Positions 1,837 through 51,943 of a stretch of 64,000 nucleotides of DNA are shown in pieces. Both the position numbers and the translations under genes were made by a program. Each line of letters opens with the position of its first letter. The first letter of the stretch is position 1. Source of the DNA: Ascidia mentula (lineage: Eukaryota > Chordata > Ascidiacea > Phlebobranchia > Ascidiidae); the NCBI GenBank assembly GCA_947561715.1, contig OX387200.1:10666501-10730500 (forward strand), given 5' to 3'. The notes beneath the pieces are model-generated. The model did not search any database, was not told the origin of the DNA, and saw only the letters and a list, made by a program, of their open reading frames with translations.

Positions 1837-1905
1837 CGACGATCGTTCGCCATTAAAACCATGCTTCGACACTTTGTTTGTGACACAGAAATTGCACCAA
1901 AAAGA

Positions 1906-1987
1906 CGTTGTCGGCAGGATTCGAACCTGCGCGGGCAGAGCCCAACAGATTTCTAGTCTGTCGCCTTAACCACTCGGCCACGACAAC
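1906..1987 (-). tRNA. tRNA-Ser(AGA), array copy 13
   Basis: This copy is identical in sequence to copy 1. Confidence 0.97.
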
Positions 1988-2056
1988 CGACGATCGTTCG
2001 CCATTAAAACCATGCTTCGACACTTTGTTTGTGACTCGGAAATTGTACCAAAAAGA

Positions 2057-2138
2057 CGTTGTCGGCAGGATTCGAACCTGCGCGGGCAGAGCCCAACAGA
2101 TTTCTAGTCTGTCGCCTTAACCACTCGGCCACGACAAC
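2057..2138 (-). tRNA. tRNA-Ser(AGA), array copy 14
   Basis: This copy is identical in sequence to copy 1. Confidence 0.97.
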
Positions 2139-2207
2139 CGACGATCGTTCGCCATTAAAACCATGCTTCGACACTTTGTTTGTGACTCGGAAATTGTACC
2201 AAAAAGA

Positions 2208-2289
2208 CGTTATCGGCAGGATTCGAACCTGCGCGGGCAGAGCCCAACAGATTTCTAGTCTGTCGCCTTAACCACTCGGCCACGACAAC
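2208..2289 (-). tRNA. tRNA-Ser(AGA), array copy 15, last complete copy
   Basis: The 3' acceptor strand has a C-to-T change that turns pair 4 into a G.U wobble, which should be tolerated. The other parts are intact. Confidence 0.94.
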
Positions 2290-20700: not shown

Positions 20701-23700
20701 TTAACCTAGAAATACGCTGAATAAATATCAATCGACATACAATGCTGTCATTAGAACCGGGTTGTATAAACCGTCGGAAAACGTAAACGAAAAACTTACG
20801 AGGAACTCACAAATTTCTATGTATTGAAGCTGTAAGCTAAAAAAAATCATCAAGTTTAAGCAGAAGACAATCCAACTTCATTTTAATCAGATTCTGTTTC
20901 TTGACGACGATGTTACTTCACTAAACTTCCAGTAACCACCAATTAAGTAATTAGTGATTTTTTTAAGCAAAAAGTGATTACCAGGACTGACCTGGGTTAT
21001 TGCACAATTATAATTTCGCCTATCTCTATTCTAAAAACAACATATACAAAAAAAGGGCAAACAGTAGGATTGAAATCAAACGCACACACCTAGGCTTGCA
21101 CATACTTAACATATAGACTACATTCCTGCACAAATAAATAAAAACTGAAATAGATCAGCAGTCAACGATGTTAACGAATAAATCTGTTGCGTCAGCAGTT
21201 TGTTCTGAGGGTAAAATTAACATTAACAGGCACCAGCACACCAGCGGCATATATTCTCTGAATTAGTATCTTGGATGATTGTGTAATAATCTAGGTCGGT
21301 CCTAGCAATCACTTTTAGCAATAAGTTTTGTGCCCGATCCCCAGACCAATAAATGTTTTCAGTGGGAGATCTGCGCAACATATAAACATTTCTATTTGAT
21401 TTTAGCTAATGGTTGGCAAATTGCTGAAGTTAACATCAACGCAGCTGCCTCCTTCAGCATAATATTCGAGGCTGAAGTTACCAGTAGTAGTGGTGGAACA
21501 ATCTCAATCGATGACATCTACACACAACCTGGCGTGTACGTATCATAATGTTGTTAGGTATGCAAAGTTTCATTAAAAAAAACCTGCGATTGATATTGTC
21601 ATACAGATGCGACCCTGCAACTGCAATACCTCCATTCACGTGTGTCAATGACACTTCAACAGTAATAATTGGAAGCCAAACATGTGACTTTGTGGCACAT
21701 TGCACTGATGGAAGCGACGAGGCGCAGTGTGGAGCTTGTGGTTTCGAAGATGACGGCGTTTGTGGATGGTACGACGCCAGCGCTGGACAATACCAATGGG
21801 TCCTTTTGCAAGGTAATTTTTGTTAAAGTTTGGTTATTTGAATTTCTGTGAAGCAGTCTTTTACCAACAATTAACAAACAGTTAAAAAAGGTAAGATTGT
21901 AATAAAACTGGTCTGCAGGCAATCAAGCGAATGGTGATGGTCCAGATAACGACCACACTGAACAAACCGGTTTTGGTCACTACTTCGCTGTCGAGTCTTA
22001 CACCGGGACACAAAACACACCCGCCAGACTCACCAGCGCCTTCATGCGACAAGCTTCTGCATCGTGTGAAGTCAGGTAAACGAAGTTCAAGCATTGTTTA
22101 GAAATGCATGGCTGCTGTTACCCGGAGTGACAACAAGTCGTTTTTTAGATTTTTCTTCCACATGCGGGACAAAAACGTGGGGTGGAATTGCCCAGGGTTG
22201 GCCCCAAACCTTAACTGTGATGACGGAATATGTCAGGGTGAAGCAATGGGATGCTGTTTCGATGCACGTGATCTGGCGTGCTACCCATGTTGGGCTCCTT
22301 GCGCCCCAACACGTAAGTTGTCTTGTTTATAAACTAATCCATTCAAAAATGTAATGCTTAATGATCGTAAAACAGTTTGCACAATTAACTGTTGCTTGTA
22401 TGTATTTTAACTTATAGCCCAAAATTTCTAAAACTATCAACCTTTTTAAAACATTTTTTTTTCAAAATTAGAAAGATCACTTTGTCAAAGCTTTTCTAAT
22501 TTTGAAAAATTTTGTGAGACAGCGAAAGATAACTTTTTCATTGCAAAGCAATTTTTTCATTATGAAGTGTTAGTGTGGAACAATACTTGTAGAGTGAAAT
22601 GTTTAGGATCGGCACTGGGGCCATTTGATAAGAAGAAGGTGGTTGTGGATCCTATAACACGTGGTTCAACTCAATACGCAAACCATGAAGTCGCAGAATT
22701 GTCACTTTACATTCGACAAAACCACCGTGAAACTGGTTTGTGGAGATTGCAAGAACAAGATTTTGGAGAAGGCTGGAATTACCAAGCAGTAAAACTCGGA
22801 CGTATTAACGGAGACTTTGAACTCCTATTCTATGCAACACGGTACGCGGCTTATTAAACTCCTTTGCACTTCTTACTTTAAAAAAAAAACATGTACAGGC
22901 ATAATTGTTCTAGCATGTTAATTTATCTGAAGGAAAGACTGATAGTAAGTATTTGCAAAAAGTATACTATTTAGTAAAAAGTTTTCCGTCTGCTGTAGAA
23001 ACTTTGAGGTGGAAGGCAGTGTAGCGATCGACGACATTACGTTTGTGGATTGTGGATTGGATCAATCCAACCCACCCGTATGCGATACTTACGACGTGCG
23101 ATGTGATCGTGGAAACTGTGTTCCCACTTGGAAGGTTAGAGATTTGTTTTTTGAGATTACATGTGTACGCTGAAAAAAGAACGGTGAAATGCTCGGAGAA
23201 TCCGATAGCCGTGTATCAAATATTTATAATCGTTGAGAATATTCAACTGTATGTATCTCCTACATTTTTTTGGTTCTAATTAAAGTCCCACCTTGCAGAT
23301 GTGCGACTTCACTGATGATTGCGGTGACGGGAGCGAGGAAACTAATTGTGACACTTACACGAGATGTAATTTTGAAGACAACGACATCTGCATGTTCGTT
23401 AACGAGAGAGTAAGCCACTAAAATTTATGTCCAAAATTCATATGAACCGTTACAAGATAAATTTTAATTGTAGTACTACGACGACATCAACTGGACCGTG
23501 CAGCGTGCTGACGTCACGAATAGTTTGACCACTGGGGAATCGACACCAACTCGTGACCACACGACCAATACAGACGCTGGTTACTACTTAACAGTCCTTA
23601 CAAAGAGACCGAACTTTAAGGGTGAATTTAAAACTAAGTTTATTTTTTAACAAATGTTTGAAACTAAGTGTTTCTGATTACCGTCAGTAGGTCTAATTTT

Positions 23701-26700
23701 TAAAATGTAAAATGGATTTCGCCTACATACACAAATTTGTGTACAGGTAGCTTCGAGTGCTTTATTGCATTTTATTTGCAGAAACTGATGATACCTTTGT
23801 AGGCGAAATCGATTTTTCGTATTTCAAAAATATACCGACTGACGGTAATCAGAAACACTTGGTTTATGCGCTACAACTGCTGTCGCTGGTTTTAAGACCG
23901 TGCTACATCAGGGGCTATATTCTGTCCACTTTAGAGATTAGATTTTATTTTTTAACTTGTTTTTTTTGTAACAACGCCAACATTTAACATCAGGTGAACG
24001 CGCATGGCTTTCTAGTCCGGTGTTCGAACCAACAACTGGAACTTCTCGATGCAACTTTTTCTTTTACGTCCACATGACGACACAGAACGAAGGCGGAGGG
24101 CTTTTCGTGTATTACAGAACAGAGGATCGGGGTCCTTTGACTCTTCTTTGGGAAAGATCGGATGAAACCAACGACTACTTTGCCAGGTATCTTCAACAAG
24201 ACAATTTAATGTTCAGCAAACCTTAATGCGTATAATTCACAAATTCCAAAGCATTTATTATTTAAATTGTCACCCTTACAAACTGCTTCTCATTTTCGTA
24301 TACTTTAACTCGAAACTACTTAAGTGAAAGAAAAATGAAACGTTTGCTTGTTGTGCAGATACGGAATTGACTTGAACGACAGGTTTGGTCAGCGTTGGCA
24401 GTTGGTTATAGAAGCAGTGGTTGGTGGTCAAGAATACGGTGACATCACAATCGACGATCTCGTGTTCCGTGACCAGTGTGTTGTGTCTGATGACCAAACA
24501 CTTCCGATTGGAACGACCCCACCCACAACTCCCAGTCCTTGTAGTGGAGATGAGTTCGTCTGTGACGACAGAACCTGCATTCCTTACTCAAACTTGTAAG
24601 CTGTCACCTCAATATTATTTACTGATTGTTCCACTGTTGTCAGTTTATCATCAGAAAACTTTATCAGATGCAAAGTGCATTGCTGTGCGTTTTTTCTTGG
24701 TTACGCCAGTGAAGTCAAAAAAGTGTTATCTCGTTTTTTCAAGCTGTGACTTCAAAGAAGATTGTGGCGATGGTTCAGACGAGCTGCGTTGCGGAAAATG
24801 CGATTTCGAAACAACGACATGCGGGTGGACAGATATAAGCTCAGGACATTTCGTGTGGAACAGGGAGGATGCAACCATAGTAACCGATCCAAACGGACCA
24901 AAGACAGATGGAAGCTTAAACCCAGACGGCTAGTATGACGCATAAGTTGTAATATGTAAAAGCAATAAATAACCACTCCAGCAAAATCTAACTGGTTGAG
25001 AATGTGATATAAACACATTTGAGTCTTAATCTATTCCGCTTGGTTTAGTTTCATGCACGCGGATGAAACTCAGAGTACGTTTTTGGCACAAGCAGAACTA
25101 ATGAGTCCACCATACGGAGAGACAGGTCTTGCGTGTACAATGAGGTTTATGTATTACCAAGGTGGAAGCGATCATTCAGGCATAACTATGGTGCAGGTGC
25201 GAAATATTTTTAATAAACTTTCTCTTCACATACTGCATGTTTACTGAAAATAAACTCCAATGTAAAATTTTGATAGTTTTTGTTATAATTCATCTTGCCA
25301 CTTTTTTAATAGGTTGGTGAATTTCGACCTGACGCTCAACGCGATTTCCAAATTTCCTGGATCCGAATTTCCAATCAACCCAATCAGTGGCTGCAAGGAG
25401 TTGCTCCAATCGGTGATTATATTTTCTGATAAAACTTAAGAATTTGTGCAATGTGGAAACATGAACAAGGGATTATGTCAGGTGATCGCGACGCTGGTTT
25501 TCATGTGAAGATTGTTGGCATGCCTTGCTTCCGTGGTTTCGATTGCAATGATTTGGCGGTTGATGATGTCAGTTTTGAGTACTGCCATCCTGGCGATATC
25601 CCCCCGTTTTATAACCAGGTGAGCAGAAAAAAAAAACAGTTTGTCGCAAGTCATCACATAGTTTTCCTAGATTTATTTTGCATTAGGCAAATAGTGTTGT
25701 GATTGAGTGCAAAAAGGGCCACTGTTTTAAACTAGTCTTAATCAGTACAGTTTTGGTGACTTACAACGACCTTGCTAGCTAAATAGCCAACAAAATGTCC
25801 AAAAAATATATTTTACACGTTTAACGTTTGGTTGCAGGTGGATTGCGATTTCGAGGATGGATCGTGTGGTTGGTTCAACTACCAACATGACGATTTCGAC
25901 TGGAAACGAAAGTATGGAACTGACGACACACTTAACACCGGACCTCGATACGATCACACACTCGGTAGTAATTTGTGGTAATTCGTCAAGGTTTGGGATT
26001 TTATGCAAGTTTCTTATTTCAAGGTGAGGGACAGTTGGGTTACTACATGTTTATTAATGCTGAAAGTCGACTGGAAGCAGATGCCATGGCAACACTTATC
26101 ACTATGAACCAAACAGCTATGCCGTCTGATGGAAAGTGCATCACATTTTGGTACGATCTTCTGATGTTTTGTCCATAAGTCAAATTTTCCACATGAAAAC
26201 ACATTCTCGTGTCCGTATCTGACATCACCTGGCCTCAAGGTTTATGACAAACAAAAGTGGTCTACAATCTCAGACGAGCGTTGACTGTTGTTTTATCTGG
26301 TCATGTAAAATCCCGCGCACCTGTTCCAAAAATGTTAAATCCTGTTTTCCATGTAAAGGTACCACATGTTCGGACCGAGTATTGGAACACTTCGTCTTTC
26401 CATCATTAAACATGGCAAGGAAGGTATAGAGGGAAACTGGAGAGTTATTTGGCAAAGAACGGGAATGCAAGGAAACAGGTGGGTCAAAAATGACGAATAT
26501 TGAATACAGTGCTATGTATAACATGTGCATTTAAATCATAGGTGGGAATTTGGGCAAATTCGCCAATGGTCATCCTCTTACATCTGGCAGCTAAAATTCG
26601 ACGCAACAAGAAAGGGTTATGATGGTGACATTGCAATTGACGACATTAAACTGACTAAAGGTTAATATTTGCTCAAGATTTTATGAAGAAGCACAATAAA

Positions 26701-29700: not shown

Positions 29701-32700
29701 CAAACATGTGTTTATAACGTTGTCTGCAAACAGATGGCCGTGATTCGTTTGCGATGCTCACGCAGAAAGTGAGGAACACAAACTATCTTCCCTACTGGTT
29801 TGCTTGCGAGTACAAACCCCAATTGTCTGGGCCGGCAGCAGTCAACCAGGCTGCGGAAGCAGGTTAAAAAGTTTCTTCTCATGAAGTTTCTACAAAATTG
29901 TGCCCTGTATAATATAAACGTGAAATGTTTTTCTAAAAAAAACAGGATATTATATGAGCGCCGATGTAACGAAAGCTGCAGACCAATCAACATCGAGATT
30001 AATGACAAGTAGAGCTTACCCTCCGACAGCAGCTGAGGGAATTTGCTGGACTTTCCACTATCACTTGTTTGGACCTGACATCGGTGACTTCAGTGCAAAT
30101 ATCATATCTCAAACATACGGAGAAATTGAGGTAATCTAACATAAAACAGTGCTTTTTTTTCTCTTTTTCTTTAAAATATAATAGTTTGGTGAAGTATTTC
30201 AATTCATTTGTAAAGACCGCATTTAAATTAAGTCAAATCAAACCATTTGTGGAGAGCTGCAGACAGGGTGTGTACACGCACTGTTTCGGCCTGTAAGGTC
30301 TCATCAGTGCAGCAGTTGACAGTGGCACTGTGCTAGCTTTTAAACTAACGGGCACACTAATTTCCACTTTGTGGTACCTTTCGGTCAACATCGATCCACA
30401 CTCTGTCTGCAGCTCTCCAATATTATGGCTTTTTTGCACACAAATCATTTGAATTTTGCACAAAAAATTACTACGTGAATGAACAATACAGACAAGAAAT
30501 AAAATGACATGGAAACCGATAAAACCGTGTAGGTTTTCGAGTCAGGCGCCCATTGCATAGAGAATGCTAGCAGAATTCATGAACATACGGTGTGTGCAGA
30601 ACCAAATTTAACGTGAATAAAAACGTGGCAGATGCGTGAATACCTTTAATCAAAATTCAATTCCACATCAAATAGTTGTGGTCCCGGAGCGATGGAACTG
30701 AGGATATTTGGATTCCTGTACATCTCTACGTTTCAAGTCCTGCCTCAGGATTTTTCCTTTCCTTTAACGCAATCCGCGGCTCGAGTTGGGATGGTGACGT
30801 GTCCATTGATGACGTATTCTTTCGTGACGGATATTGTCCTGAGAGAAGTGGTGCATGTGATTTTGAACAAGATCTATGTAACTGGGCAAATGATTGGAAC
30901 GCGGATTTTCTGTGGAAACGACTGAACTCAGGTTTGTAGTCAAAAAAGCCCGAATGTGAAAGAGTTATCTTAAAATTATGATGTTAGTAAGATTATTTTA
31001 CTTAATATCTGAATGTGTTTATAGGAAGTACAGAGAGTGGCAGTGGGCCACCTAACGATCACACGACCAACCAACAAGGATATTACGTATCTGCAAATCA
31101 CAACGACGGATCAGTCGGTGAAAAGGCCCGTCTCATGTCGGAAGTTTATCTTTCTGGAGAACCTGTGTCCTGCTCGTTTCCCTTTGAATATGAGGTATAA
31201 TTGGAAATGTTCTTATTGTGTGAGGAAAGGTGAACTACAAACATTCCTTTAGCGGTAATGTTTTTTTTAAACTTTTTATTTTCACGGATTTATTTCATTT
31301 TCTATATTTTCCTGGATTTCTTTTCTCTTGAAAACTTTTGCCTAAATTATCAGGAGAATCGTAAATTCAAGTCGAAACTTACGTGAACACTGCTTCTTAT
31401 TTACAGGGTAAAACGTACTACGAATGTACAACAGACGGCCGTGATTTCGCATGGTGTTCCACCACGCCAGTGTACAGTGGCCAATACCTCAACTGCGACG
31501 AGCAAGGCGGCACGTGGATTTTCACCACCGGTGGAACTGGCAACGGACAAAAATGCGTTTTCCCTTTTTCGTACGGAGGAGAGATTTATCATGCGTGCAT
31601 AATGATCGACCACAACGTGCCCTGGTGCTCAACCACTGACGTATACCAGGGATACTGGGGAGAATGTTTAGGTTTGTAACGTTTGTTAGATTGTTTTGGT
31701 CACTTTACATTGTTGCGAATAGTTAAAGACAATTTAAACAAGAAACTTTTTTTCACAAATAACTTTAACTAAAACTCTGTTTGGTATTTCCATACAGGGG
31801 CAAACTGTTTGACTTTCTGGTATCACCATTATTACAACCCCGCCGTATTCCGCGTTATCCAAAGTTTGGGAAATGGTACACGTAACTATCAGGAAGTAGA
31901 AATGTTTTCACGATCATCGGATCAGGGAAATTACTGGAGATTTGGTTACGCCGAAATGATGCCCAGTTCCCTCCCTTGGCAGGCGGTCTTCGAAGCGGAA
32001 ATTCTTGGTAAGTTTACTCATCTACCAAATTTTGGGCAAACTAACCGTAGGTCATCACTACCTTTTCTCAAAAAAAATTACAACCAAACTTACTAAAAAC
32101 ACTAACAGTTGGTAGATGAGTAAACTGGCAATGTTGTTTTTAGACAATGCGTTTGGTGATCTTGCCATTGATGACGTCAGATTGTTGAACGAGCGTTGTC
32201 CTTTACCTGGTCACTGTGATTTTGAATTGGGAATGTGTGGATATATTAACTCACCAAGCGGAAATTTGGATAGTTTGGATTGGGTGAGAGACAAGGGAGC
32301 GAACTCTGCTGGAAATGTTGGACCCGCATTCGATCACACACTTGGTAATACCTTGTTAATTAAAAGTTAATTTTACATTTGTTTTTCTTTACTATTGAAT
32401 TCTTCTTTCAGAAAATCCGGAAGGTTATTCTGTGTTTGTGAGCATGAGTTCAGGTTCTGCTGGGTCGAAGGCAAGACTTTTTTCGGATAGTTTTGAAGTC
32501 ACGGATAATGCAGAAAGGTTAGCAACCATTGAAGACATTTTGGTATTCGGCGTGACGAAACAAAAATAGTTTAACTTGTTGTTGAGTGGTTGATTACTTA
32601 CCTTTCCACACATGCACATGTGAAAGACGCAACATTGTCGTATTTGCAGATGTATAATATTCTGGTATCACATGTACGGGTCTGAAGTCGGAACTCTTAA

Positions 32701-35700
32701 CATTTACGTGGCGACGTCATCGGACCAATCGCCTACCACCAGTGTGTGGACAACTTCTAATTCCCAAGGAAATCTGTGGATGCAGAAACAACTCACAGTC
32801 ACTCAAGCGGAAAACTTTTGGGTGGTGTTTGAAGGTAATTGGTTAAACTAGCAAACTATGTTTTCTATGATTGTGGCATTTTTAAGGATTTTACTAATAA
32901 CGAATGTGTCGGTTTAGTATGTTATCTTTGTTTCACTAATTTGTAATATGCTTAACTGACAAATAACAACATCGTTGCACATTTATGGGTAAACATGATT
33001 TCATTTTAGCCGTCGTCGGTACTCCAGGCAATGGCTGGATTGCCATTGATGACGTTGAAGTTTATGTGAATGGTTGTCCGACCAGTGGACCACCGACCAC
33101 CACTCTACCACCCCTTACTCACCCAGACCACAAACCAACCAAGGGCGATTGTGACTTTGAAAATGGGTATAGACTTGACGTAAACCCTGTCACTTGTGCC
33201 CATCTGAAATTTGTCTTTTGAATAGATTCTGTTACTACGTTCGTCCGCCTGATGATCCAATGGAGTGGTTACGAGCGCAAGGAGATACCGGGTCACGATC
33301 TACGGGACCTAATGTTGATCACACTACTGGAAGTACCACAGGTTACTTTGCTCACATCGATCCCTCGGGACAAACAGAGGGAGATTTTGCCAGGTTGATC
33401 AGCAGTGAACAAACATTAGGTGATTGTAAAAGTAATGCGTGTGATTGGTTGAAAATGTATGTTAAGTTAAAAACCAGACATGTTAATGCAGTTATTGTTT
33501 GGCGCTAGTAACAAGTTGATAGGCGTGACAAGCCTGACCGCTATTGCGCAACCCACGTTTGTAATAATTTTTGTGTGGTCATATTTGTAAGTTAAGATAG
33601 CGGCCCGCGGGTTTCTCTTTTGGTTGCACAAGGATTGCAAAAATATCATGTCAAAAAAGAAAGAAATTTATGTTACTAGTAATGAAATTAACAAAATCAA
33701 AACAGGCAATCGCAGTTGTAATTTGAGCATTTCAAAAATCAGAAACATTAGAGAACGAAATACGGCAAACCAACTCTCCCACTAAAAACAATGATTTCCG
33801 CGGCCATTCTCCAAAAAGCAACATCAATTATAGCCCAACATGGCATTTCGGTAAGACACCACCGATTTACAAAATATTTTTTTGTATCGACAGACTCGGG
33901 TGGTTTATGCGTTGAATTCTGGTATTTTATGTACGGACGAGATGTGGCGAATCTAAACATTTACTGGATGTCGGGGGGTGGCGCTAGACAAGAACTTGTT
34001 TGGAGTAGAAACGGAACACATGGACCACAGTGGAGATATGGACAGGTTCCTAAATTGCTGCTGCTAGCATTTACTTTAACTGTGTCCGATTGACAAACAC
34101 AGGTTAAATGCAGTGGTTTTAACTGCTCCGCATTCCAAAATAACTTTTCGATTTTTACACGCCTTGTTTGCTATAATTTCAACTTTTTCTATTTTAATTA
34201 GTAAAGATACAAAGTACTTACGTAATACATTGAGGATCCCCGCGCCCCTATAAGAACACAAGCACTCCTGGTTAAGAATCCCTGGTTTCATGGGTCAGTG
34301 GACCGACGTTTTCAAAAGATGAATATTTTTCCAGGTACACATATCCCAACAACTCACTTTACAAATAGTCATCGAAGCGACAGTTGGACCGGCTTGGGCT
34401 GGCGATATTGCCATTGACGACCTTAAGGTAAAAACCCTTAACCAACAAACTGACCATGTTATTAAAACTTATTACTGGGGTGTGTGCACTCTTTATCAGA
34501 AAATAATCATAGTCATTCTGTTCAGTTTGATTTCATCGATTGTCCGGCTACCCCTGATTGTGGTTTTGAGAATGGAGTTGACGGAATTTGTGGTTTTACA
34601 CAAGACTTCCAAGACGACTTTGACTGGTTAAGAGGCAGTGGCACGATTAATGGAGACACGTCAGGTATCAACAAACACCCATATGTATAGACTTTATCGT
34701 TGAACATATTTGTAGCAGCAAAAAATTGATCCTTCGGTTACTAGAAATACTAGGAAATAGGAAATTCTAGTACACATTAGATTGCATCTGAAATATATAT
34801 ATTCATATATACTCTTTATAAATTAGATGTAAGTTGCAGTTTGTACGTCTTCGCGTTGCTATATACAAAAAGCAATAAATGTATGATGGTTGGGTAAACA
34901 GGTTTGAGTTACGATCACACATACGGAACATCATACGGTCACTACATGTACATGCCCGCTGGTTTGCCGACCGGACAGAAAGCTCGTCTCTTATCGAAGA
35001 TGTATCCTGCTACTGATGGACATTGCATGACATTCTACTATCACAGCTACATGGCCGGAATAGGTGATGTTACGAAAAAAATGTTTCTTGGTGTTAGATT
35101 GAGAATGAAATCAATGTCATATATGTGCAAAAAAGCCATAATATCGGGGAGTTGCAGACAGGGTGTATACACACACTGTTTCGACCTGTAAGGTCTCATC
35201 AAAGTAATTCGACAAAATTTTTACATGTGAACTTTTCTTAAAGGAACTTTAAATGTTTACTACATGGAGGAAAACGATTACCCGTCACTTTTATGGAGCA
35301 TCAGCGAACACATGAACAACCACTGGCGACCCATGCAAGTCTCAATAACCACAACCAAACAATTCCAGGTTTGGAAATGAAAAATTTTATGTATTGAAGT
35401 GTTGAATGACATACAACGTCGGATGTTACCTGATACACTTTTTTATCTGTAGATAATTTTCGAGGCGATCGCAGGAACTGCAACAGAAGGTGATTTAGCG
35501 ATAGATGATGTTCTCATGTTGCCTGGTATGTGCCCTCCGCTCGGTTCGTGTACATTCGAGGATGGATATTGCACTTGGGAAAACTCTGAAAACTCGGACG
35601 ATTTTGATTGGATGCGAAGTGCTGGAGAGTCGATGACAGCTGATACCGGACCTACGACCGACCACACATTAGGAACCAATTACGGTAAGCTAAAAGATTT

Positions 35701-44700: not shown

Positions 44701-47700
44701 GGCGTGGTTGAACAGTCCCATCATTGACGTCACTACAGGCAGTTGCGAGGTTGGATTTAGTTTGCATTAAACAAAATTTTTTCTTTAACTTATACTTATC
44801 CAAACCTTTTAACATAGATTCGATTGTGGTATCTGATGTACGGGATCGACGTATATCGGTTAAGTGTTTACATGAAGACAGCTGTAAACGGTGGTTTCAC
44901 ACACCTAAAGGACTTTTCGGGTTCAAGTATGTTATGGAGAAGAGCTTCCATTCCAATTACGTCATTCCAACCATTCCAGGTAACACAAAACTTGTCGTGT
45001 GGTCTGTGATCGCCAACCGTAAATAAAAAACATCAAGAACGTTTGAACTTTCATCAAATGAACGTTTATTTTTCTCCGTATGTTTAGATTGTCATTGAAG
45101 CTGTAGTTGGAAGCGGAAAATACGGTGACATCGCTGTCGACGACTTGTCGTTTTCATTCGAGTGTTCCGCATACAATGGTAAATACATTGCACAGTATTT
45201 TCTACATAACTAGTCAAAGTTAGGAACATTATTAACTGATTTGCTCATAATTCTGAGAATAAAGGGACTGGCCCATACAATGTCATGTATCATGTACGAA
45301 AAACGTTTCGGCAAGAACTTATGCCATCATCAGTTTAATTGACGCGGTTGGTGTAGCTCCAGGATTATATGAAGCTGACCAGACTGACGTCACAGATAAG
45401 ACTCGTACGGGTGGTGACGTCATATTGTTTTCGGCCACATACCACTAGAGGCGAAAAGTGCGCAGTAAGCGACGCAAAACGCAATACACAATAAACGGCA
45501 TAAAACACAAAAAAAACATATTAAACATTGAAAAGTAATAGTGGTAAAAATTTGAACAAACAGTATGGGCCAATCTCTTTATTCTCAGAATTATGGTCAA
45601 AGTCGATATCAAACAAAATTTGTACGATTCTGTTGAATTTCCCCTGTCGCTGTATACCAAAATTTTGTCACTCATAAAAATATATTTCTTAAAAGGAATT
45701 CTCCCGACTCTTCCCGTGGATCAACCTCCATCCAAACCTCTTCCTCCCGGGACTTGTGATGAAAATCTCGAGTTCGAATGTCGCCAAACATCTGTGTGTA
45801 TTCTCGTCACCCAACTCTGCGACTTCCGCTCTGATTGTTCTGACGGATCGGATGAATCCAGTTGCGGTAAGTAAACAATCTACAATTACAGATTAGTAAC
45901 GAATATATGGCGGTGGATTTGTGTTTAGTGCCGACATCGTGCGACTTCGAGTCTGGTTTGTGTCTCTGGCAAACTTCACCACCTCTTTCCCCTGGCGAAA
46001 GGTAACAAGTATTTATTTTACTGAAAACCAACCCTGGTATTTGTCTCCCTAACATTCCCGGATTAATTGTATATTACAGCGACACGTTTACTTGGATGCG
46101 CGGCAAGCCAGCAGGATCAAGTTCATCTGGTAGACCTCCTCAAGGTCACACGTCGTCCTCACAGACTGAATACTACTTATACGCTCACAGCTTTGGAGTT
46201 ACAAGCGGACAATCAACCCAAGTAATTCAGAAAAATATACTTCTTCACAAACGTCCAGACAGCACTTACCAACATTAAAAAAATCGTATTTATTCATTTA
46301 CGTCTGTTGTGTTTTTAGTTTTATTCGACCAACATTGCAAAATCTGGCCCGCAATGCACTTTACGGTTTTTCTACTGGATGGGAAGTTCGGATACGGACT
46401 CGGTGGGTTCACTGTATGTGTTTGCTCTTCCTACCGACAACAACAACCTTATGGACGATTATATCGAACTGTGGTCGAGAAATGGTTACCAAGGAGGTGG
46501 ATGGATTGAAGGAAGGGCATTTGTCGGCTACAGGACTAACTTTCAGGTGCGAAAACTCATGAAAATCTGTATGTATTAAAAAGAAGTACAAAAAAATCAT
46601 TTAAAATCTTGGTTGTTTTCGACACAGTTGGTGATTGAAGCAAGAAGACAAGACTCGCAATACATTGACGTCACAATTGACGATCTACTCTTCATGGATT
46701 GCGCACCACCAACTTCTGGGGGATGTCCCCAGCCAAGCTTCACCTGTCTTGATGGGGTAAGGCTTTAATTGCAAGGTTTTGGTTTGTAACATTTTACTAC
46801 AAACATGTTTTGCGTTGTTTTTGTAGGCTTGCATTGACCGAAGTTTAATGTGCGATTTTTCTGACAATTGTGGAGATGGAAGTGATGAAGCTCAAGCAAT
46901 TTGTTACAACAAACTACCAAGGTTTTTACTTGTTCCAACTATTGTCAAGTTTTATGTGATTTAAACTAAACATTTTATTTATTTATCTATATGCATACGA
47001 ACATTGACTTTTCCAAAGAGTTGTAACCCATGAATTTCAATGTTTTAATGGCAGATGCGATTTTGAGCATGATCTGTGCGACTTTGAGCGACAAAGCGCC
47101 GACATGCAGTGGCAGCTTGCACAACCCGGTTCAATCACTGACGGAAGTACTTTACCGACTCAAGATCACACGCTACAACGAGCTGATGGTCATTTCATGT
47201 TTGCTGATCCGATGACTTCCAATGATCCTTCCTATAATGGAAGAGCTTGGCTTGGATCTCCTGGTTAGCAATTAGTTGTTGTTTTTACTCATCACAGTTT
47301 TTCGCATATTTTATTGTGTAGGTCTTTTCATGGTGCCATCATCTGGCTGCAAAGTCCGGTTTTATTACAATATTTGGTCAAACACGGACGTATTATCTGT
47401 GTATGTACGAACTGACTGGCTAAGTGACACCAACGTTGGATTTAATTTAATGTACTCAACCGCCCAAGACCCATCTTTTAATCCCGGACAATTCTGGCAA
47501 AGAGCTGAGGTTTCATTAACTTCTACTAAAGAATTTCAAGGTGGGAATATGGTTTGTTTTTCATGTTTAATTTCAACATGGTATCTCTTTGTCACAATGA
47601 TAACTTTTTCATGAAACATATAAGATCTTCAATGTTATAAGACCGAAAATAAAAAGTGACATCACATACTTCCTTCTTCTTCCAACATAATTTTGTTTTT

Positions 47701-50700: not shown

Positions 50701-51943
50701 AGCGGAGAGTTCTTTTGCCTTGACAACAGCGGAGCGTGTTACGGATCTATAATGTTGTGCGACGAATACGTTGGTTGTCAAGCTTTCCAGGTGAGATGTG
50801 AACACACGGCTACATTCATACTAGTGTTAGTGTATTGAGTTTGTACACTTTGTGAAAAACAAATACTTCTCCCTTTGTAGTCAAGATGTATTTTCACAGC
50901 ATATGACCCTATTTTAATTTACAGGCTGATGAAAGCCTGTGCGATGGTTGCCCAATAAACTACTGTAAGAACAATGGTAAATGTTCTCTTTCGGCGAACG
51001 GGGGTCCAACATGTGAATGTGCATCTGGTTTTGTTGGTCAAAGATGTACCAAGAAAAAAGAAGTGACCACCTCGAAACCTCCAGCAGGACTCGATAAAGG
51101 TTGGTTCCCTGTCCTTGATTCATGCAACTAATGTCTCTGTAGAATCTTTAGATAACTTCATTTTGGTTTTGTATCAACCTATTTTAACTTGTATTTCTAG
51201 GAGCAATCGTGGGAATCGTGTTTGGTACAATTATTGGCGTCATCATCATCGTGGCCATCGCCTATACTGTCATGAAGAAACAAGGGTAATATATCGTCCA
51301 ACATAACAATGAAAATGTTTTCCTAACCAGCAACACTTCTTTGGAGTGACACAAGTGAAACTTCAACGTCAATTTCAAATATTACTATTACAACTTTGTG
51401 TCAACGCTTCTAGTTTTAGAAAACATGTTTAGCTTTTTTAAGCATCATCAGTTCTTTTTCAAATAGAAAAAGCTTGATAAAGCGAAACATAATGTTTTCT
51501 GAAACTAGAAGCGTTGACACAAAGTTGTAATAGCAATATTTGAAATCGTCCAACATAAGTAGTTTACCATATTTTTGACGATTCTACTATACGCTTTGCG
51601 TTATGAAAATATATTAATGAACAAGGAATATGAACAGTGTTTTGCAATTTATAACAGACTAAAGGGAAGGCCTGGTATGGGTCTCGCTCGATCGTACGAC
51701 AATCCAATGTTCGATACTCCTTACGGTTCGTCAAGTTTTGGAAAGTCATCAGGTGCACAGCAAGCCACAGAGATGAAAGTATCAAAAATGAGTCGGGAAA
51801 ACAGCGCTGAAGCTGGATTTTCCAACCCCGGCTTCTCGGACGGAGAAAATCTGCAAACTTTCGGAGAAGCGGCGCCAATATACGCCACTTTGGGCAAAGG
51901 ACCATCACGTCAACGCCGTGCGAGCAGTGATACGAGTGCATAG
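2488..51943 (+). CDS. Giant MAM/LDL-receptor-class-A transmembrane protein (3' part of gene, about 149 exons)
   Basis: One multi-exon gene spans almost the whole window. The exons were joined by reading GT-AG sites with consistent phase. They give about 39 MAM domains (the first partial), 21 LDLa modules, one ILEI domain, two FN2 modules, one EGF module, a transmembrane helix and a cytoplasmic tail, about 7,000-7,500 residues. Each MAM usually uses four or five exons: the C.FE..CGW start up to DHT; the GHYMYIEAS strand; the FWYHMYG..GTLNIY strand; a W..G.QG..W strand; and the FEA.RG..GDIAIDD strand. MAM domains are extracellular adhesion folds, and LDLa modules bind calcium and ligands. The nearest known architecture is MALRD1/Diet1, but that protein is far smaller and I do not claim orthology. 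The first exon begins after an acceptor in mid-domain, so the 5' end is outside the window. The following entries give the blocks. Confidence 0.93.
2900..3965 (-). mobile_element. Penelope-like retroelement fragment with GIY-YIG endonuclease
   Basis: The minus strand encodes a GIY-YIG nuclease of the Penelope type. Signature pieces are [27 protein letters not shown] and the upstream Cys/His cluster [11 protein letters not shown]. This domain cuts target DNA during Penelope retrotransposition. Only the 3', endonuclease-bearing part is seen and no reverse-transcriptase motifs are present, so it is a fossil fragment. A hammerhead-like motif lies at its downstream end (2921-2960), as known for the pseudo-LTRs of this family. 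The boundaries are approximate. Confidence 0.85.
2921..2960 (-). ncRNA. Hammerhead ribozyme-like motif of the Penelope element
   Basis: The minus strand has CTGATGA (2950-2956), then a 6-8 bp stem II (GCGAGAT/ATCTCGC, 2933-2948), then GAAA (2929-2932). A one-pair stem III and a C at the cleavage position follow. Stem I is GCAC/GTGC (2957-2960 with 2921-2924). One unpaired A (2949) between the core and stem II departs from the canonical form. Penelope-like elements are known to carry minimal type I hammerheads. Confidence 0.7.
4255..6330 (+). CDS. MAM 2 and MAM 3
   Basis: Exons are 4255-4421, 4478-4715, 4895-5039, 5219-5329, 5780-5940, 6004-6142 and the start of 6313-6554. MAM 2 begins [12 protein letters not shown] and ends GDIAIDDL...GECP; MAM 3 begins [11 protein letters not shown] in the same exon. 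The DHT motif (LDHT, VDHTTG) and [16 protein letters not shown] mark the fold. There is no linker between the domains: the last strand and the next domain start share an exon, a pattern repeated through most of the gene. The exon after the donor at 5940 begins after AAAAAG, an atypical acceptor tract. Confidence 0.9.
6313..9563 (+). CDS. MAM 4, MAM 5 and MAM 6
   Basis: Exons are 6313-6554, 6827-7069, 7224-7449, 7746-7890, 8329-8482, 8607-8697, 8764-8892, 8962-9085, 9264-9390 and 9461-9563. The domain starts are [24 protein letters not shown] and [12 protein letters not shown] Pro/Thr-rich linker ([19 protein letters not shown], about 6360-6415) precedes MAM 4. Splice junctions inside the conserved FW|YHM motif use phase 2 (TG|G), a recurring boundary in this gene. 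Confidence 0.92.
9624..13730 (+). CDS. LDLa 1 - MAM 7 - LDLa 2 - MAM 8 - LDLa 3 - MAM 9
   Basis: Exons are 9624-9716, 10480-10650, 10731-10825, 10930-11095, 11248-11389, 11451-11575, 11710-11818, 11886-12054, 12274-12375, 12436-12630, 12950-13142, 13213-13338, 13394-13539 and the start of 13621-13852. Each LDLa module is split by an intron between its third and fourth cysteine region. LDLa 2 is canonical ([15 protein letters not shown]). LDLa 1 lacks cysteine 3 and the DGSDE signature ([10 protein letters not shown]). A Thr/Pro linker ([13 protein letters not shown]) precedes LDLa 3. MAM 7 and MAM 9 share an opening of the type CGW.D.SS..(A)W. Confidence 0.9.
9717..10479 (+). other. Intron inside LDLa 1, no recognisable content
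   Basis: This 763-bp intron splits LDLa 1 between CDFTK and DCPNN. I see no gene, RNA or repeat in it. Confidence 0.7.
13621..17899 (+). CDS. MAM 10, MAM 11 and MAM 12 (MAM 12 hosts the nested exonuclease gene)
   Basis: Exons are 13621-13852, 13990-14123, 14212-14339, 14411-14588, 14758-14963, 15112-15271, 15416-15506, 15625-15768, 15880-16034, 17387-17511 and 17758-17899. Domain starts are [22 protein letters not shown] and [11 protein letters not shown]. The introns 16035-17386 and 17512-17757 lie inside MAM 12; the first contains an antisense exonuclease gene. MAM 12 ends GDIALDDF, followed by a Thr/Pro linker ([13 protein letters not shown]). Confidence 0.9.
16120..17337 (-). CDS. TREX-like DEDDh 3'-5' exonuclease, single exon, nested in an intron
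   Basis: A 405-residue uninterrupted frame on the minus strand lies wholly within the intron between two MAM 12 exons. The C-terminal half has the three exonuclease motifs of the TREX/DnaQ family: [11 protein letters not shown] (D200, E202), [15 protein letters not shown] (H295, N296, D301) and SHRADEDV (H365, D370). [12 protein letters not shown] and [12 protein letters not shown] lie between them, as in TREX1/2. All four catalytic acids and the histidine are present, so activity is plausible. Residues 1-190 match no domain I can name; pieces such as [11 protein letters not shown] and [16 protein letters not shown] hint at a second, decayed exonuclease fold. The lack of introns in a gene-dense, intron-rich region suggests a retrocopy or a mobile origin. 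The first Met is taken as the start. Confidence 0.85.
   Translation of the reverse strand: MKFPFFNTPTHPLHSARRDKQDHLARNTNWEGRNIKGFFAMEDFAGSYVLINCTTKHISLLAIHAVACLDGDDRIIDRLSLIKKSSQFCMEDRELVNLFLRLQAQPITFVADRSNWDWFRHFLTAESNFTWWDVTADLHETPTIANHDPDEKNFTTLKMMFSKFVSDFRDVSVQNNLRSTNGESSLLIRSNNERVFVFVDLEHSAGYKPQCTTELCMYAVAENSLRGNSIEEILRCDKLVLVVDPKKEIFWKVVELTQLTRDLIRRSKKLPFSNLTPMIEAFLKRQGNNVCLIAHNGKSCDFRILRSDLRTAELPESSIWRKYTCTDTLAAFRRLAKLENPTEKTSFSLSNLLRRYTGENIENSHRADEDVVALIKVVKSKIAVLEFLEVKNFIQAAQATPAVTE
17968..21535 (+). CDS. MAM 13, MAM 14 and MAM 15
   Basis: Exons are 17968-18179, 18292-18456, 18555-18669, 18726-18912, 19084-19268, 19608-19796, 20000-20121, 20283-20443 and 21406-21535. Domain starts are [25 protein letters not shown] and [12 protein letters not shown]. 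The intron after 18179 has a GC donor (AG|GCAAGT) instead of GT; no GT donor gives an open frame into the next exon. MAM 15 lacks the usual TGP..DHT spacing (it reads [15 protein letters not shown]) and its third strand is short. Confidence 0.87.
20444..21405 (+). other. Long intron in MAM 15, no recognisable content
   Basis: The intron is 962 bp, AT-rich and splits the MAM after DTSD. I found no gene, inverted repeat or RNA in it. Confidence 0.7.
21607..25618 (+). CDS. LDLa 4 - MAM 16 - LDLa 5 - MAM 17 - LDLa 6 - MAM 18
   Basis: Exons are 21607-21812, 21919-22075, 22149-22312, 22607-22841, 22999-23134, 23299-23409, 23474-23621, 23994-24186, 24359-24595, 24744-24932, 25049-25196, 25313-25412 and 25482-25618. 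LDLa 5 ([17 protein letters not shown]) and LDLa 6 ([16 protein letters not shown]) keep the calcium-binding acids. LDLa 4 lacks cysteine 3, like LDLa 1. A Thr/Pro linker ([13 protein letters not shown]) precedes LDLa 6. MAM 16 is interrupted by a Cys-rich insert (separate entry). The exon ending at 24932 uses donor GGCTA|GTATGA and rejoins as GYFMHAD. Confidence 0.88.
22175..22680 (+). CDS. Cys-rich insertion inside MAM 16
   Basis: After the MAM strand [12 protein letters not shown], the exon 22149-22312 runs into a segment with eight cysteines (pieces [17 protein letters not shown] and CYPCWAPC). The next exon (22607-22841) starts with about 20 non-MAM residues before the fold resumes at ELSLYIRQN...[14 protein letters not shown]. 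The CCFD piece recalls trefoil domains, but the cysteine spacing does not match that pattern, so I leave the type open. The splice phase is consistent on both sides. Confidence 0.6.
23666..23860. repeat. Foldback element with inverted arms and a hammerhead-like motif
   Basis: The outer 23 bp (23666-23688) are a perfect inverted copy of 23838-23860. Similarity continues inwards with gaps for about 65 bp (GGATTTCGCCTACA against TGTAGGCGAAATC). The right arm carries a hammerhead-like motif (separate entry). The element sits in the intron between the MAM 17 exons ending at 23621 and starting at 23994. Its outer limits are not certain. Confidence 0.75.
23781..23825 (+). ncRNA. Hammerhead ribozyme-like motif in foldback element
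   Basis: The plus strand shows GAAA (stem I), CTGATGA (23785-23791), a short stem II (CCT/AGG), GAAA (23805-23808), a stem III of ATCG/CGT type, an A at the cleavage position, and TTTC closing stem I. Stem II has unpaired bases next to the core, so activity is uncertain. Confidence 0.5.
25838..28727 (+). CDS. MAM 19, MAM 20 and MAM 21
   Basis: Exons are 25838-25964, 26024-26150, 26359-26478, 26542-26660, 26870-27070, 27404-27576, 27798-27999, 28154-28313, 28394-28506 and 28566-28727. Domain starts are [23 protein letters not shown] and [11 protein letters not shown]. No LDLa lies between them. MAM 20 has an unusual [22 protein letters not shown] strand in which the usual FEA.RG is replaced. 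A short TTTA microsatellite (about 27368-27393) lies just before the acceptor at 27403. Confidence 0.9.
28939..30820 (+). CDS. MAM 22 with an ILEI/PANDER (FAM3-like) domain inserted in it
   Basis: Exons are 28939-29124, 29190-29371, 29514-29673, 29734-29862, 29946-30130 and the start of 30676-30931. The MAM opens with [11 protein letters not shown] and reaches YDHTTGVEG. Two exons (29190-29371 and 29514-29673) then encode an ILEI fold: [57 protein letters not shown] and [13 protein letters not shown]. These match the FAM3/POMGNT1/CEMIP type of domain. The MAM resumes after a 50-residue linker at [14 protein letters not shown] and ends [11 protein letters not shown] Thr/Pro linker ([12 protein letters not shown]) precedes the MAM. 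ILEI domains bind glycans or act as secreted factors in known proteins; the role here is not known. Confidence 0.88.
30251..30440. repeat. Hammerhead-bearing foldback repeat
   Basis: The left arm (30251-30272) is repeated inverted at 30397-30419 with one mismatch, enclosing a hammerhead on the minus strand. The right arm continues into a 21-bp tail (30420-30440) whose inverse also starts the copy at 35124. The element sits in the intron 30131-30675 between MAM 22 exons. Confidence 0.8.
30256..30313 (-). ncRNA. Hammerhead ribozyme, near-complete
   Basis: On the minus strand all parts are present. Stem I is GCTGCA/TGCAGC (30308-30313 with 30256-30261). The core is CTGATGA (30301-30307). Stem II is GACCT-TAC-AGGCC with one A.C mismatch. 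GAAA follows, then stem III ACAG/CTGT with a GT-rich loop, and C17 (30262) at the cleavage site. This is a type I arrangement (open at stem I). Confidence 0.78.
30676..32200 (+). CDS. MAM 23 with two fibronectin type II modules inserted
   Basis: Exons are 30676-30931, 31025-31194, 31407-31671, 31798-32007 and the start of 32144-32344. MAM 23 opens [11 protein letters not shown] and reaches [16 protein letters not shown]. Then come FN2 1 ([27 protein letters not shown]) and FN2 2 ([27 protein letters not shown]), joined by a Gly/Thr linker. The MAM resumes at [14 protein letters not shown] and ends GDLAIDDV. Each FN2 has the four cysteines and the WCST motif of the collagen/gelatin-binding family. 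FN2 1 starts at 31171 and FN2 2 ends at 31667. An intron splits FN2 1 after CSFPFEYE. Confidence 0.92.
32008..32143 (+). other. Short intron built around an 18-bp perfect inverted repeat
   Basis: The arms at 32011-32028 and 32109-32126 are perfectly complementary and separated by 80 nt. The left arm starts at intron position +4 and so includes part of the GTAAGT donor. The right arm ends 17 nt before the acceptor. A hairpin would bring both splice sites together and partly cover the donor. It may be a remnant foldback element. Confidence 0.85.
32144..36330 (+). CDS. MAM 24, MAM 25, MAM 26 and MAM 27
   Basis: Exons are 32144-32344, 32412-32517, 32650-32834, 33010-33166, 33226-33419, 33894-34045, 34335-34427, 34526-34664, 34902-35063, 35244-35368, 35453-35684, 35760-35878, 36003-36198 and the start of 36318-36504. 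Domain starts are [36 protein letters not shown] and [14 protein letters not shown] 25 follows a Thr/Pro linker ([14 protein letters not shown]) and has an intron inside its opening motif (ENG|FCYY). No LDLa separates these domains. Confidence 0.88.
35124..35202. repeat. Single-arm copy of the hammerhead repeat
   Basis: The first 21 bp (TGTGCAAAAAAGCCATAATAT) match the inverse of 30420-30440, and the following bases match the 30.25-kb arm through the hammerhead core, where similarity stops. No inverted partner is seen. It lies in the intron 35064-35243. Confidence 0.8.
35152..35202 (-). ncRNA. Hammerhead ribozyme-like motif, stem I incomplete
   Basis: On the minus strand stem II is a perfect 5-bp GACCT/AGGTC with loop TAC. 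GAAA, stem III ACAG/CTGT and C17 are present. The core reads TTGATGA instead of CTGATGA, and the 5' strand of stem I is missing because the repeat ends there. It is probably inactive. Confidence 0.65.
36318..40195 (+). CDS. LDLa 7 - MAM 28 - LDLa 8 - MAM 29 - LDLa 9 - MAM 30 - LDLa 10
   Basis: Exons are 36318-36504, 36578-36681, 36766-36938, 37030-37181, 37307-37465, 37638-37835, 38306-38547, 38825-39026, 39131-39313, 39397-39581, 39651-39768 and 40021-40195. From here to the end an LDLa follows every MAM. Domain starts are [24 protein letters not shown] and [11 protein letters not shown]. LDLa 8 ([16 protein letters not shown]) and LDLa 10 ([16 protein letters not shown]) keep the acidic calcium site. 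A Thr/Pro linker ([14 protein letters not shown]) precedes LDLa 9. MAM 28 has a short fourth strand ([11 protein letters not shown]). The intron 37836-38305 shows nothing recognisable. Confidence 0.9.
40275..43238 (+). CDS. MAM 31 - LDLa 11 - MAM 32 - LDLa 12 - MAM 33 - LDLa 13
   Basis: Exons are 40275-40446, 40504-40620, 40703-40801, 40942-41115, 41249-41432, 41524-41620, 41704-41863, 41922-42046, 42139-42293, 42444-42624, 42710-42863, 42920-42992 and 43056-43238. Domain starts are [22 protein letters not shown] and [11 protein letters not shown]. These MAMs are more diverged than the earlier ones: the FWYHMYG strand reads [22 protein letters not shown] and [10 protein letters not shown]. 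LDLa 12 has an extra cysteine (YDCCDESDE). LDLa 13 is a standard module ([16 protein letters not shown]). Confidence 0.88.
43353..45866 (+). CDS. MAM 34 - LDLa 14 - MAM 35 - LDLa 15
   Basis: Exons are 43353-43479, 43535-43670, 43754-43915, 44017-44230, 44327-44440, 44616-44749, 44818-44979, 45088-45178 and 45696-45866. MAM 34 opens [17 protein letters not shown] with an insertion between its first two cysteines. MAM 35 has lost both opening cysteines: it reads [19 protein letters not shown] where other copies have CDFE..CGW. Its later strands ([17 protein letters not shown]) are normal. LDLa 15 follows a Pro-rich linker ([13 protein letters not shown]). Confidence 0.87.
45241..45600. repeat. 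Terminal-inverted-repeat element (360 bp) with a hammerhead-like motif
   Basis: The ends 45246-45278 and 45563-45595 are inverted copies matching at 31 of 33 positions, and similarity extends weakly to 45241 and 45600. The left arm contains, on the minus strand, CTGATGA (45327-45333), a GGC/GCC stem II, GAAA, and a perfect stem III ACG-TTTTT-CGT. No matching stem I is evident. The element lies in the intron 45179-45695. I find no clear target duplication. Confidence 0.8.
45929..50124 (+). CDS. MAM 36 - LDLa 16 - MAM 37 - LDLa 17 - MAM 38 - LDLa 18 - MAM 39
   Basis: Exons are 45929-46001, 46080-46221, 46319-46546, 46628-46756, 46827-46921, 47055-47263, 47322-47540, 47749-48012, 48174-48294, 48365-48509, 48735-48856, 48931-49087, 49247-49412, 49614-49805 and 49888-50124. 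Domain starts are [33 protein letters not shown] and [15 protein letters not shown]. LDLa 17 has a long final loop ([16 protein letters not shown]). In MAM 39 the last two strands are fused in one exon (49888-50124), where other copies are split after an F-Q codon; an intron has been lost here. Confidence 0.89.
50195..50960 (+). CDS. LDLa 19, LDLa 20 and LDLa 21 (tandem, membrane-proximal)
   Basis: Exons are 50195-50400, 50593-50790 and the start of 50925-51099. This is the only place where LDLa modules are adjacent with no MAM between. LDLa 19 ([16 protein letters not shown]) and LDLa 20 ([16 protein letters not shown]) keep the calcium ligands. LDLa 21 ([17 protein letters not shown]) has lost the SDE signature and probably binds no calcium. 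A Thr/Pro linker ([13 protein letters not shown]) separates the first two. Confidence 0.9.
50925..51943 (+). CDS. EGF module, transmembrane helix and cytoplasmic tail (C-terminus)
   Basis: Exons are 50925-51099, 51201-51285 and 51658-51943. The EGF module has six cysteines ([12 protein letters not shown] to [12 protein letters not shown]). The transmembrane helix is [20 protein letters not shown], followed by the stop-transfer sequence MKKQG. The tail of about 95 residues carries YDNPMF and SNPGF (NPxF endocytic type) and IYATL (YxxL type). It is rich in Ser and ends RRASSDTSA. The topology is type I. The stop is TAG at 51941-51943. The tail suggests adaptor binding and endocytosis, an inference from motif classes only. 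Confidence 0.92.
51307..51544. mobile_element. Foldback insertion with 14-bp target duplication
   Basis: An identical 14-bp sequence, ATCGTCCAACATAA, lies at 51293-51306 and 51545-51558 and flanks 238 bp of inserted sequence. Inside, 51372-51426 and 51492-51546 are inverted repeats matching at 53 of 55 positions (the second runs two bases into the direct repeat). The loop region carries a decayed hammerhead-like core on the minus strand (CTGATGA at 51445-51451, TAAAC instead of GAAAC). The insertion is eight bases downstream of the donor at 51286, in the intron between the transmembrane and tail exons. Confidence 0.82.

What the first reader, a model, noticed from the sequence alone, without database searches (positions are those of the whole stretch)
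23666..51558. A set of hammerhead-bearing foldback repeats in introns of one gene
Repeats at 23.7, 30.3, 35.1, 45.3 and 51.4 kb, plus the Penelope end at 2.9 kb, share a CTGATGA - short hairpin - GAAA signature. Four of the five small ones have inverted arms with the motif towards the inner side. The 30.3-kb copy has every helix of a hammerhead. They look like inverted pseudo-LTR dimers of non-autonomous Penelope-type elements, and I know of no named family with this form. All lie in introns of the same pre-mRNA, where self-cleavage, if it occurs, would compete with splicing. The motifs on the minus strand would act only in antisense RNA; the 23.8-kb one is in the sense strand.
Basis: partly seen in the sequence, partly recalled or inferred. 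Interest (0 to 1): 0.8.

Follow-up and report, generated by a model that had tools for sequence, protein, structure and literature searches.

The report
Hammerhead retroelements inserted head to head
Small inverted repeats in the introns of a sea-squirt gene are scars left by Penelope-type jumping genes and by a tiny ribozyme-carrying passenger element, whose insertion marks suggest that Penelope enzymes also move the passenger.

Summary
The repeats are real, but they are not one family, and the foldback is not an inherited form. The 23.7- and 45.3-kb repeats (B, C) are cut-down ends of Penelope-like elements (PLEs); 51.4 kb (D) probably is; 2.9 kb (E) is a PLE piece with a GIY-YIG endonuclease. 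The 30.3- and 35.1-kb repeats (A) differ: a 281-291-bp non-coding unit with a full type I hammerhead consensus, 763 genomic hammerhead matches and tandem arrays, like animal retrozymes. Copies of all five families share an insertion mark: two arms head to head, tails outward, one short and one long tail, usually with 8-14-bp target duplications. Over 92 distinct sites: 41 close head-to-head pairs, 0 tail-to-tail; 36 of 41 have one short and one long tail; arm heads differ by 20 nt or more in 39 of 41. So each foldback is made anew, best explained by priming on both strands. This gives the published idea that PLEs mobilise animal retrozymes a specific genomic mark. Competition with splicing is not supported: four of five small motifs are antisense, and the sense one is mutated and buried in a hairpin.

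The parts
2825..3865 (-). 5'-truncated PLE copy, family E, single orientation; target duplication CTTTTTAAACTT at 2813-2824 and 3866-3877
   Evidence: 53 matches from 40 scored candidates in the genome; ends and duplication read
3053..3715 (-). Open frame, 221 aa, with GIY-YIG endonuclease domain of the PLE
   Evidence: Pfam PF01541 E 3.9e-6
2929..2956 (-). Minimal PLE-type hammerhead core with stem II; stem I GCAC/GTGC
   Evidence: not found by Rfam
23652..23943 (.). Family B foldback: short-tail arm 23652-23727 (-), long-tail arm 23736-23943 (+); target duplication TTTATTTTTTAAC at 23639-23651 and 23944-23956
23785..23808 (+). Hammerhead core of family B; first stem II pair lost (GCCT to ACCT); the only small motif in the sense strand
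   Evidence: not found by Rfam
30250..30440 (.). Family A (retrozyme-like) foldback: short-tail arm 30250-30397 (-), long-tail arm 30397-30440 (+); target duplication CAAACCATTTG / CAAATCATTTG (10 of 11) at 30239-30249 and 30441-30451
30256..30313 (-). Type I hammerhead, all three helices, one A.C mismatch in stem II
35119..35201 (-). Family A single arm, cut inside the hammerhead core (C of CTGATGA absent); no target duplication seen
45221..45595 (.). Family C foldback: long-tail arm 45220-45540 (-), short-tail arm 45559-45595 (+); target duplication GTCAAAGT (8 bp) at 45213-45220 and 45596-45603
45306..45333 (-). Hammerhead-like core of family C: core and stem II intact, stem I weak
   Evidence: not found by Rfam
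51307..51544 (.). Family D foldback: long-tail arm to 51464 (-), short-tail arm from 51472 (+); target duplication ATCGTCCAACATAA at 51293-51306 and 51545-51558
51428..51451 (-). Family D hammerhead core with GAAA changed to TAAA in this copy

Best explanation
The foldbacks are insertion products of Penelope-like retroelements. The PLE enzyme (reverse transcriptase plus GIY-YIG endonuclease) makes a staggered cut and primes DNA synthesis on both cut strands, starting at one of two tail sites 3' of the hammerhead. The two cDNAs run towards the RNA's 5' end, stop at unrelated points and are joined head to head, leaving target duplications, mostly 8-14 bp. Families B, C and E are truncated ends of endonuclease-coding PLEs; D probably is. 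Family A is a non-coding retrozyme-like unit with a complete type I hammerhead consensus; its RNA, multimeric or circular, is copied in trans by PLE machinery, which is why its tandem copies and foldbacks carry the same marks. Shown: anatomy, orientation rule, tail asymmetry, target duplications, tandem arrays, endonuclease linkage for E and, more weakly, B and C. Inferred: dual-strand priming, trans-mobilisation of A, circular template, ribozyme activity.
For: 41 head-to-head (arms within 150 bp), 0 tail-to-tail among 92 distinct sites from 103 loci. In lists not chosen for foldbacks: GIY-YIG neighbours within 6 kb 17 head-to-head to 0, 121 matches; family E neighbours within 3 kb 15 to 0, 53 matches. 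36 of 41 foldbacks have one short and one long tail, binomial p 8e-7; 36 of 40 without L100, whose left end was cut by the stretch fetched. Best exact flank match of 9 bp or more in 39 of 103 loci and 25 of 41 foldbacks, against 0.7% of 547 mismatched flank pairs; of 8 bp or more 50 of 103 against 5.7%. Heads differ by 20 nt or more in 39 of 41. B and C: flank upstream of the arm is shared by ever fewer copies, with endonuclease similarity in one B locus (L044, E 4e-8) and weakly (E 0.01-0.14) in 9 of 30 C loci. A: sharing stops at the unit's start; of 12 arms reaching it, 8 (5 of 9 distinct insertions) continue into another unit's tail; 97 tail-to-head junctions, 0 in the reversed control; at C70 8 units (-) face 5 units (+), innermost ones partial, short tail at one outer end and long at the other. 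In vitro, an Anolis PLE cuts and extends both strands from two internal start sites (PMC11167929).
Against: A, B and C loci were best matches to window foldbacks, and D and E loci were partly picked as foldbacks, so foldback frequency is not estimated. Duplicate sites were merged by me by eye. Short/long cut-offs were set after seeing the data; ends are good to about 5 nt. 8 of 41 foldbacks have no flank match of 8 bp or more. No PLE sharing family A's tail or pLTR was identified; one A locus (L012) has an endonuclease pair about 1 kb away, not shared with its duplicates. One junction is shared by L004 and L006. 4 of 9 distinct A insertions reaching the unit start show no second tail. The Anolis study saw no start-site difference between strands and no need for hammerhead cleavage in vitro. 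Rfam detects the motif in 5 of 8 A loci given, below gathering score, and in none of 5 B and 7 C loci. No RNA data.
Confidence: 0.8

Rival explanations
1. Family A is not a retrozyme but solo or deleted pLTRs of a PLE whose coding copies carry the same pLTR.
For: Same insertion marks as PLEs. PLEs form tandem arrays too: endonuclease matches at 2870-bp spacing, two (-) facing three (+), at C67:6134028-6146659. A frame is open across the whole unit in the A consensus.
Against: None of 121 listed endonuclease matches (150 of 382 candidates scored) lies within 6 kb of the A tandem junctions. Sharing stops sharply at the unit start in A, unlike B and C. Up to 8 units in a row at 291-bp spacing, with no room for a coding part. 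The frame is broken in the array subfamily. A copy with coding sequence could still be among the many A copies whose flanks were not read.
Confidence: 0.2
2. Foldbacks arise by snap-back self-priming of one cDNA, as suggested for Adineta PLEs (PMC3846280).
For: Head-to-head form is as published for PLEs. Two D copies have nearly equal arms (offsets 1 and 9 nt).
Against: Snap-back should give matched arm ends and the same tail twice; here heads differ by 20 nt or more in 39 of 41 and tails differ in 36 of 41.
Confidence: 0.12
3. The repeats are DNA transposons (MITE or Foldback type) that move as a unit.
For: Inverted ends and target duplications.
Against: Junctions are distinct in 40 of 41, 48 of 92 sites show no close second arm, and B and C show 5'-truncation ladders.
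Confidence: 0.02
4. The intronic hammerheads act in the host pre-mRNA and compete with splicing.
For: One motif (23.8 kb) is in the sense strand; conserved intronic hammerheads are published for other animals (PMC6155905 passages).
Against: Four of five small motifs are antisense. The sense copy has lost a stem II pair and its element folds into a -110 kcal/mol hairpin that pairs the motif's 3' part. They look like scattered insertions.
Confidence: 0.03

Closest known systems
Penelope-like elements with inverted pLTRs (Adineta vaga Pen families, PMC3846280; Anolis PAc, PMC11167929)
   Same: GIY-YIG endonuclease, pLTR, optional tail on one of two inverted pLTRs, head-to-head order, short target duplications (8, 9 and 10 bp quoted in PMC3846280); hammerhead at the pLTR in PAc
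   Different: Most copies studied here are short with no coding part; tail asymmetry and unmatched heads are counted over many sites; host is a tunicate by length inference
Metazoan non-LTR retrozymes (Cervera and de la Pena 2020, PMC7229834, passages)
   Same: Family A: type I hammerhead, no conserved frame, 281-291-bp unit, GC 48%, tandem copies, longer target duplications
   Different: Head-to-head inverted insertions are not described there (the word inverted occurs 0 times in that text); RNA circles not shown here
Minimal hammerheads of PLEs (Cervera and de la Pena 2014, as cited in PMC6155905 and PMC7761336; original not held)
   Same: Families B, D, E: core, stem II and a short stem I; helix III absent or doubtful
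   Different: Four of the five families here carry one extra base between CTGATGA and stem II; how common that is in published motifs was not checked
LINE-1 twin priming (recalled)
   Same: Two priming events give an inverted piece
   Different: LINE-1 keeps one tail; here both ends carry the same tail region

Membership tests
Penelope-like element (families B, C, D, E) | GIY-YIG endonuclease in the same element | tested here: met
   Met for E: Pfam 3.9e-6. B: one of 30 loci, E 4e-8. C: 9 of 30 loci, weak, upstream of the arm on its strand. Not tested for D
Penelope-like element (families B, C, D, E) | Telomerase-like reverse transcriptase | not tested
   No reverse-transcriptase search was run; endonuclease-bearing frames up to 892 aa exist in the genome
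Penelope-like element (families B, C, D, E) | Hammerhead at the pLTR | tested here: inconclusive
   Core and 4 of 4 stem II pairs in each family consensus, with differing pair types; stem I 4, 2, 4, 4 pairs in B, C, D, E. Minimum-energy folds show stems I and II for D and E, not a clear hammerhead for B and C; Rfam silent. Activity untested
Penelope-like element (families B, C, D, E) | Head-to-head inverted repeats, optional tail on one side, short target duplication | tested here: met
Metazoan retrozyme (family A) | Complete type I hammerhead | tested here: met
   By structure: consensus minimum-energy fold is the three-helix form, z only -1.3. By Rfam not at threshold: best Hammerhead_3 33.8 bits, gathering 48.5; Hammerhead_1 finds nothing above cut-off in the genome
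Metazoan retrozyme (family A) | Short tandem units, GC under 50%, non-coding | tested here: met
   291-bp period, GC 0.478-0.484 in two units, no conserved frame
Metazoan retrozyme (family A) | Expressed as small linear and circular RNA that self-cleaves | not testable with these tools
   No RNA data held
MITE or Foldback DNA transposon | Same terminal and internal structure copied as a unit | tested here: not met
   40 of 41 junctions distinct

The most novel reading that the evidence does not exclude
Animal retrozymes are passengers of Penelope-like elements: PLE reverse transcriptase runs round circular hammerhead RNA from both sides of a staggered cut, starting at different tail sites on the two strands, so that one insertion can leave two tandem arrays facing each other (8 units against 5 at C70:2551.2-2554.9 kb). 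The short/long tail asymmetry would be a general mark of two coupled, non-equivalent priming events in one PLE dimer.
Probability: 0.5. Interest if true: 0.75.

Novelty: new variant of a known kind. Interest (0 to 1): 0.6.

Why it matters
How animal retrozymes move is open; published work names PLEs as likely helpers from co-occurrence, tandem form and shared ribozyme type (PMC7229834, PMC7761336 passages). A shared insertion mark is more specific and can be checked in any genome with both elements. The tail asymmetry and unmatched heads also bear on how PLEs insert, where self-priming and dual priming are competing ideas.

Tried and rejected
One shared foldback family: rejected by sequence and by distinct junctions.

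Endless reading frame in the A unit (291 = 3 x 97): the A consensus has a frame open across its 287-nt unit, but the array subfamily has stops in all three sense frames; dropped.

Rfam Hammerhead_1 as a genome counter: 7 weak matches, none above cut-off; a pattern search was used instead.

Finding A's partner PLE by neighbourhood: no listed endonuclease match within 6 kb of A tandem junctions (79 places standing for 96 of 97 junctions; the one left out is 554 kb from the nearest). The pair in L012, about 1 kb from an A copy, is not shared with the related loci L009 and L017.

Arm length against tail type: judged from the table, confounded by query choice in A; no claim made.

First C consensus mixed orientations and was redone.

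Literature: nine searches. In those on hammerheads, PLEs and retrozymes I saw no title or abstract start on head-to-head retrozyme insertions; only listings were seen for most. Read: PMC11167929 parts 1-2 of 4; PMC3846280 passages and Discussion; PMC7229834, PMC7761336, PMC6155905 and PMC11109543 passages. The two key PLE-hammerhead papers (PMC4209133, PMC5785218) are not held, so novelty is judged without them.

Full report
What was checked. The window is G000:C67:10666501-10730500 of a 195.8-Mb, 79-contig genome. The held total is smaller than the printed 196,975,169 bp in 95 scaffolds, and C70 and C73 are 1 and 5 kb shorter than the printed N50 and N90 lengths, so a different version may be held. 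The naming is inference from lengths. Of 10 + strand frames scanned, 6 match MAM or LDLa, 4 above the curated cut-off.

The motifs. CTGATGA-N(8-30)-GAAA occurs 7 times, 1.3 expected; 4 keep a stem II with at most one mismatch, against 0.04 in controls. The 35.1-kb copy lacks the first C and the 51.4-kb copy has TAAA for GAAA. The 30.3-kb motif scores 29.6 bits with Rfam Hammerhead_3 (E 0.029). Of 20 loci given to Rfam, 5 of 8 A loci score as Hammerhead_3 (24.9-33.8 bits, gathering 48.5) and none of 5 B and 7 C loci; in the window Rfam is silent at the other five motifs. Consensus motifs of five families keep 4 of 4 stem II pairs with differing base pairs at three of the four, and 7, 4, 2, 4 and 4 stem I pairs in A to E (D and E strings read by eye).

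Five families. Genome searches gave first-look candidates of 1740 (A, 30.3 kb), 220 (B, 23.7), 709 (C, 45.3), 266 (D, 51.4) and 379 (E, 2.9); 40 were scored in each, so counts are lower bounds. The 53-nt A hammerhead occurs 763 times with up to 3 mismatches and 0 times in the reversed control; the part of the list shown holds exact matches only.

Anatomy. I analysed 103 loci: 30 each of A, B and C as returned, 8 of D and 5 of E picked from coordinates, partly because they looked like foldbacks. After merging duplicated sites (grouped by eye) there are 92: 41 head-to-head foldbacks with arms within 150 bp, 0 tail-to-tail, 3 same-direction tandems, 48 single arms. Some of the 48 have a second arm further off; those in family C are head-to-head too. 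Because the queries were themselves foldbacks I also counted neighbours in lists not chosen that way: 17 head-to-head to 0 for 121 endonuclease matches and 15 to 0 for 53 family E matches.

Tails. In each family arms end at a short or a long tail site. 36 of 41 foldbacks have one of each; the exceptions are A 3 (long/long), C 1 (short/short) and E 1 (long/long, L100, whose left end was cut by the stretch fetched). Cut-offs were set on these data. The best exact flank match reached 9 bp in 39 of 103 loci, 25 of 41 foldbacks and 7 of 48 single arms, against 0.7% of 547 mismatched flank pairs; 8 bp in 50 of 103 and 33 of 41, against 5.7%. In the window the duplications are 12-14 bp for B, D and E, 8 bp for C and 10 of 11 for A at 30.3 kb; none was seen at 35.1 kb.

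Made anew. 40 of 41 foldbacks have their own pair of head positions; L004 and L006 share one. Heads differ by 20 nt or more in 39 of 41. A snap-back of one cDNA should give matched heads and one kind of tail, so two separately primed cDNAs fit better. The Anolis PLE protein cuts and extends both strands and starts inside its RNA at two adjacent sites in vitro (PMC11167929, parts 1-2 of 4). That study saw no strand difference in start site, which the genomic asymmetry does not obviously match. The tail on one of two inverted pLTRs and the head-to-head order are already described for Adineta (PMC3846280), where self-priming was preferred.

Which are PLEs. E codes a GIY-YIG endonuclease. In B and C the sequence upstream of the arm is shared by fewer and fewer copies, over up to about 1 kb in C, as expected of 5' truncation, and endonuclease similarity lies there in one B locus (E 4e-8) and, weakly, in 9 of 30 C loci. 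D was not tested. Uninterrupted endonuclease-bearing frames up to 892 aa exist, some in a tandem array of two units facing three. No reverse-transcriptase search was run.

Family A is different. Sharing stops at the start of a 281-291-bp unit. Of 12 arms that reach that start, 8 continue into another unit's tail (0 of 200 shuffles score as well) and 4 do not; merging duplicated loci, 5 of 9 insertions do. There are 97 tail-to-head junctions. At C70 eight units on the minus strand face five on the plus strand, innermost ones partial, with a short tail at one outer end and a long tail at the other (only the ends and centre were read). GC is 48% in two units. These are traits of animal retrozymes as described in PMC7229834 (passages), whose authors propose PLEs as helpers. 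The shared insertion mark is the new link offered here; that PLE enzymes act on A is inferred, and no partner PLE was identified.

Effect on the host gene. The A consensus has three helices in its minimum-energy fold (-19.8 kcal/mol, z -1.3, 22 of 200 shuffles as low, another centroid), so folding energy alone is weak evidence. The whole 30.3-kb element on the hammerhead strand and the 23.7-kb element on the sense strand fold into long hairpins instead (z -7.0 and -11.1). With four of five small motifs antisense and the sense one mutated, a role in splicing is unlikely. Hairpin formation in the pre-mRNA is possible and untested.

Verdict. Real, largely explained, a new variant of known kinds: PLE insertion scars plus a new retrozyme-like family with PLE-type insertion marks.

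Noticed in passing
window 94-2289: Fifteen near-identical tRNA genes in tandem on the minus strand, 151-bp unit; the long variable arm suggests tRNA-Ser (recalled, not tested).
   Followed up: no
window 53985-54115: Another small foldback, 40-nt arms 85% complementary, 51 nt apart; no hammerhead motif seen, not examined.
   Followed up: no
window 23312 and 37433: CTGATGA...GAAA matches that by eye look like LDLa-type coding sequence, i.e. look-alikes of the ribozyme core.
   Followed up: partly
window 56409-56431: Another CTGATGA...GAAA match, not assigned to any family.
   Followed up: no
G000:C67:6134028-6146659: Five endonuclease matches, 2870-bp spacing within each strand, two on the minus strand facing three on the plus strand, in open frames of 559-892 aa: a tandem PLE array in the same head-to-head order.
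   Followed up: partly
L004 and L006: Two different sites share the same foldback junction, with a different target duplication each; a foldback may have been re-copied.
   Followed up: partly
L025 1142-1246 and L062 2367-2521: Long hairpins scoring weakly as microRNA precursors in Rfam, probably other inverted repeats.
   Followed up: no
L010, L018, L019, L020 (contig C69): One family A insertion sits in several duplicated copies of a longer segment along C69, in both orientations.
   Followed up: no
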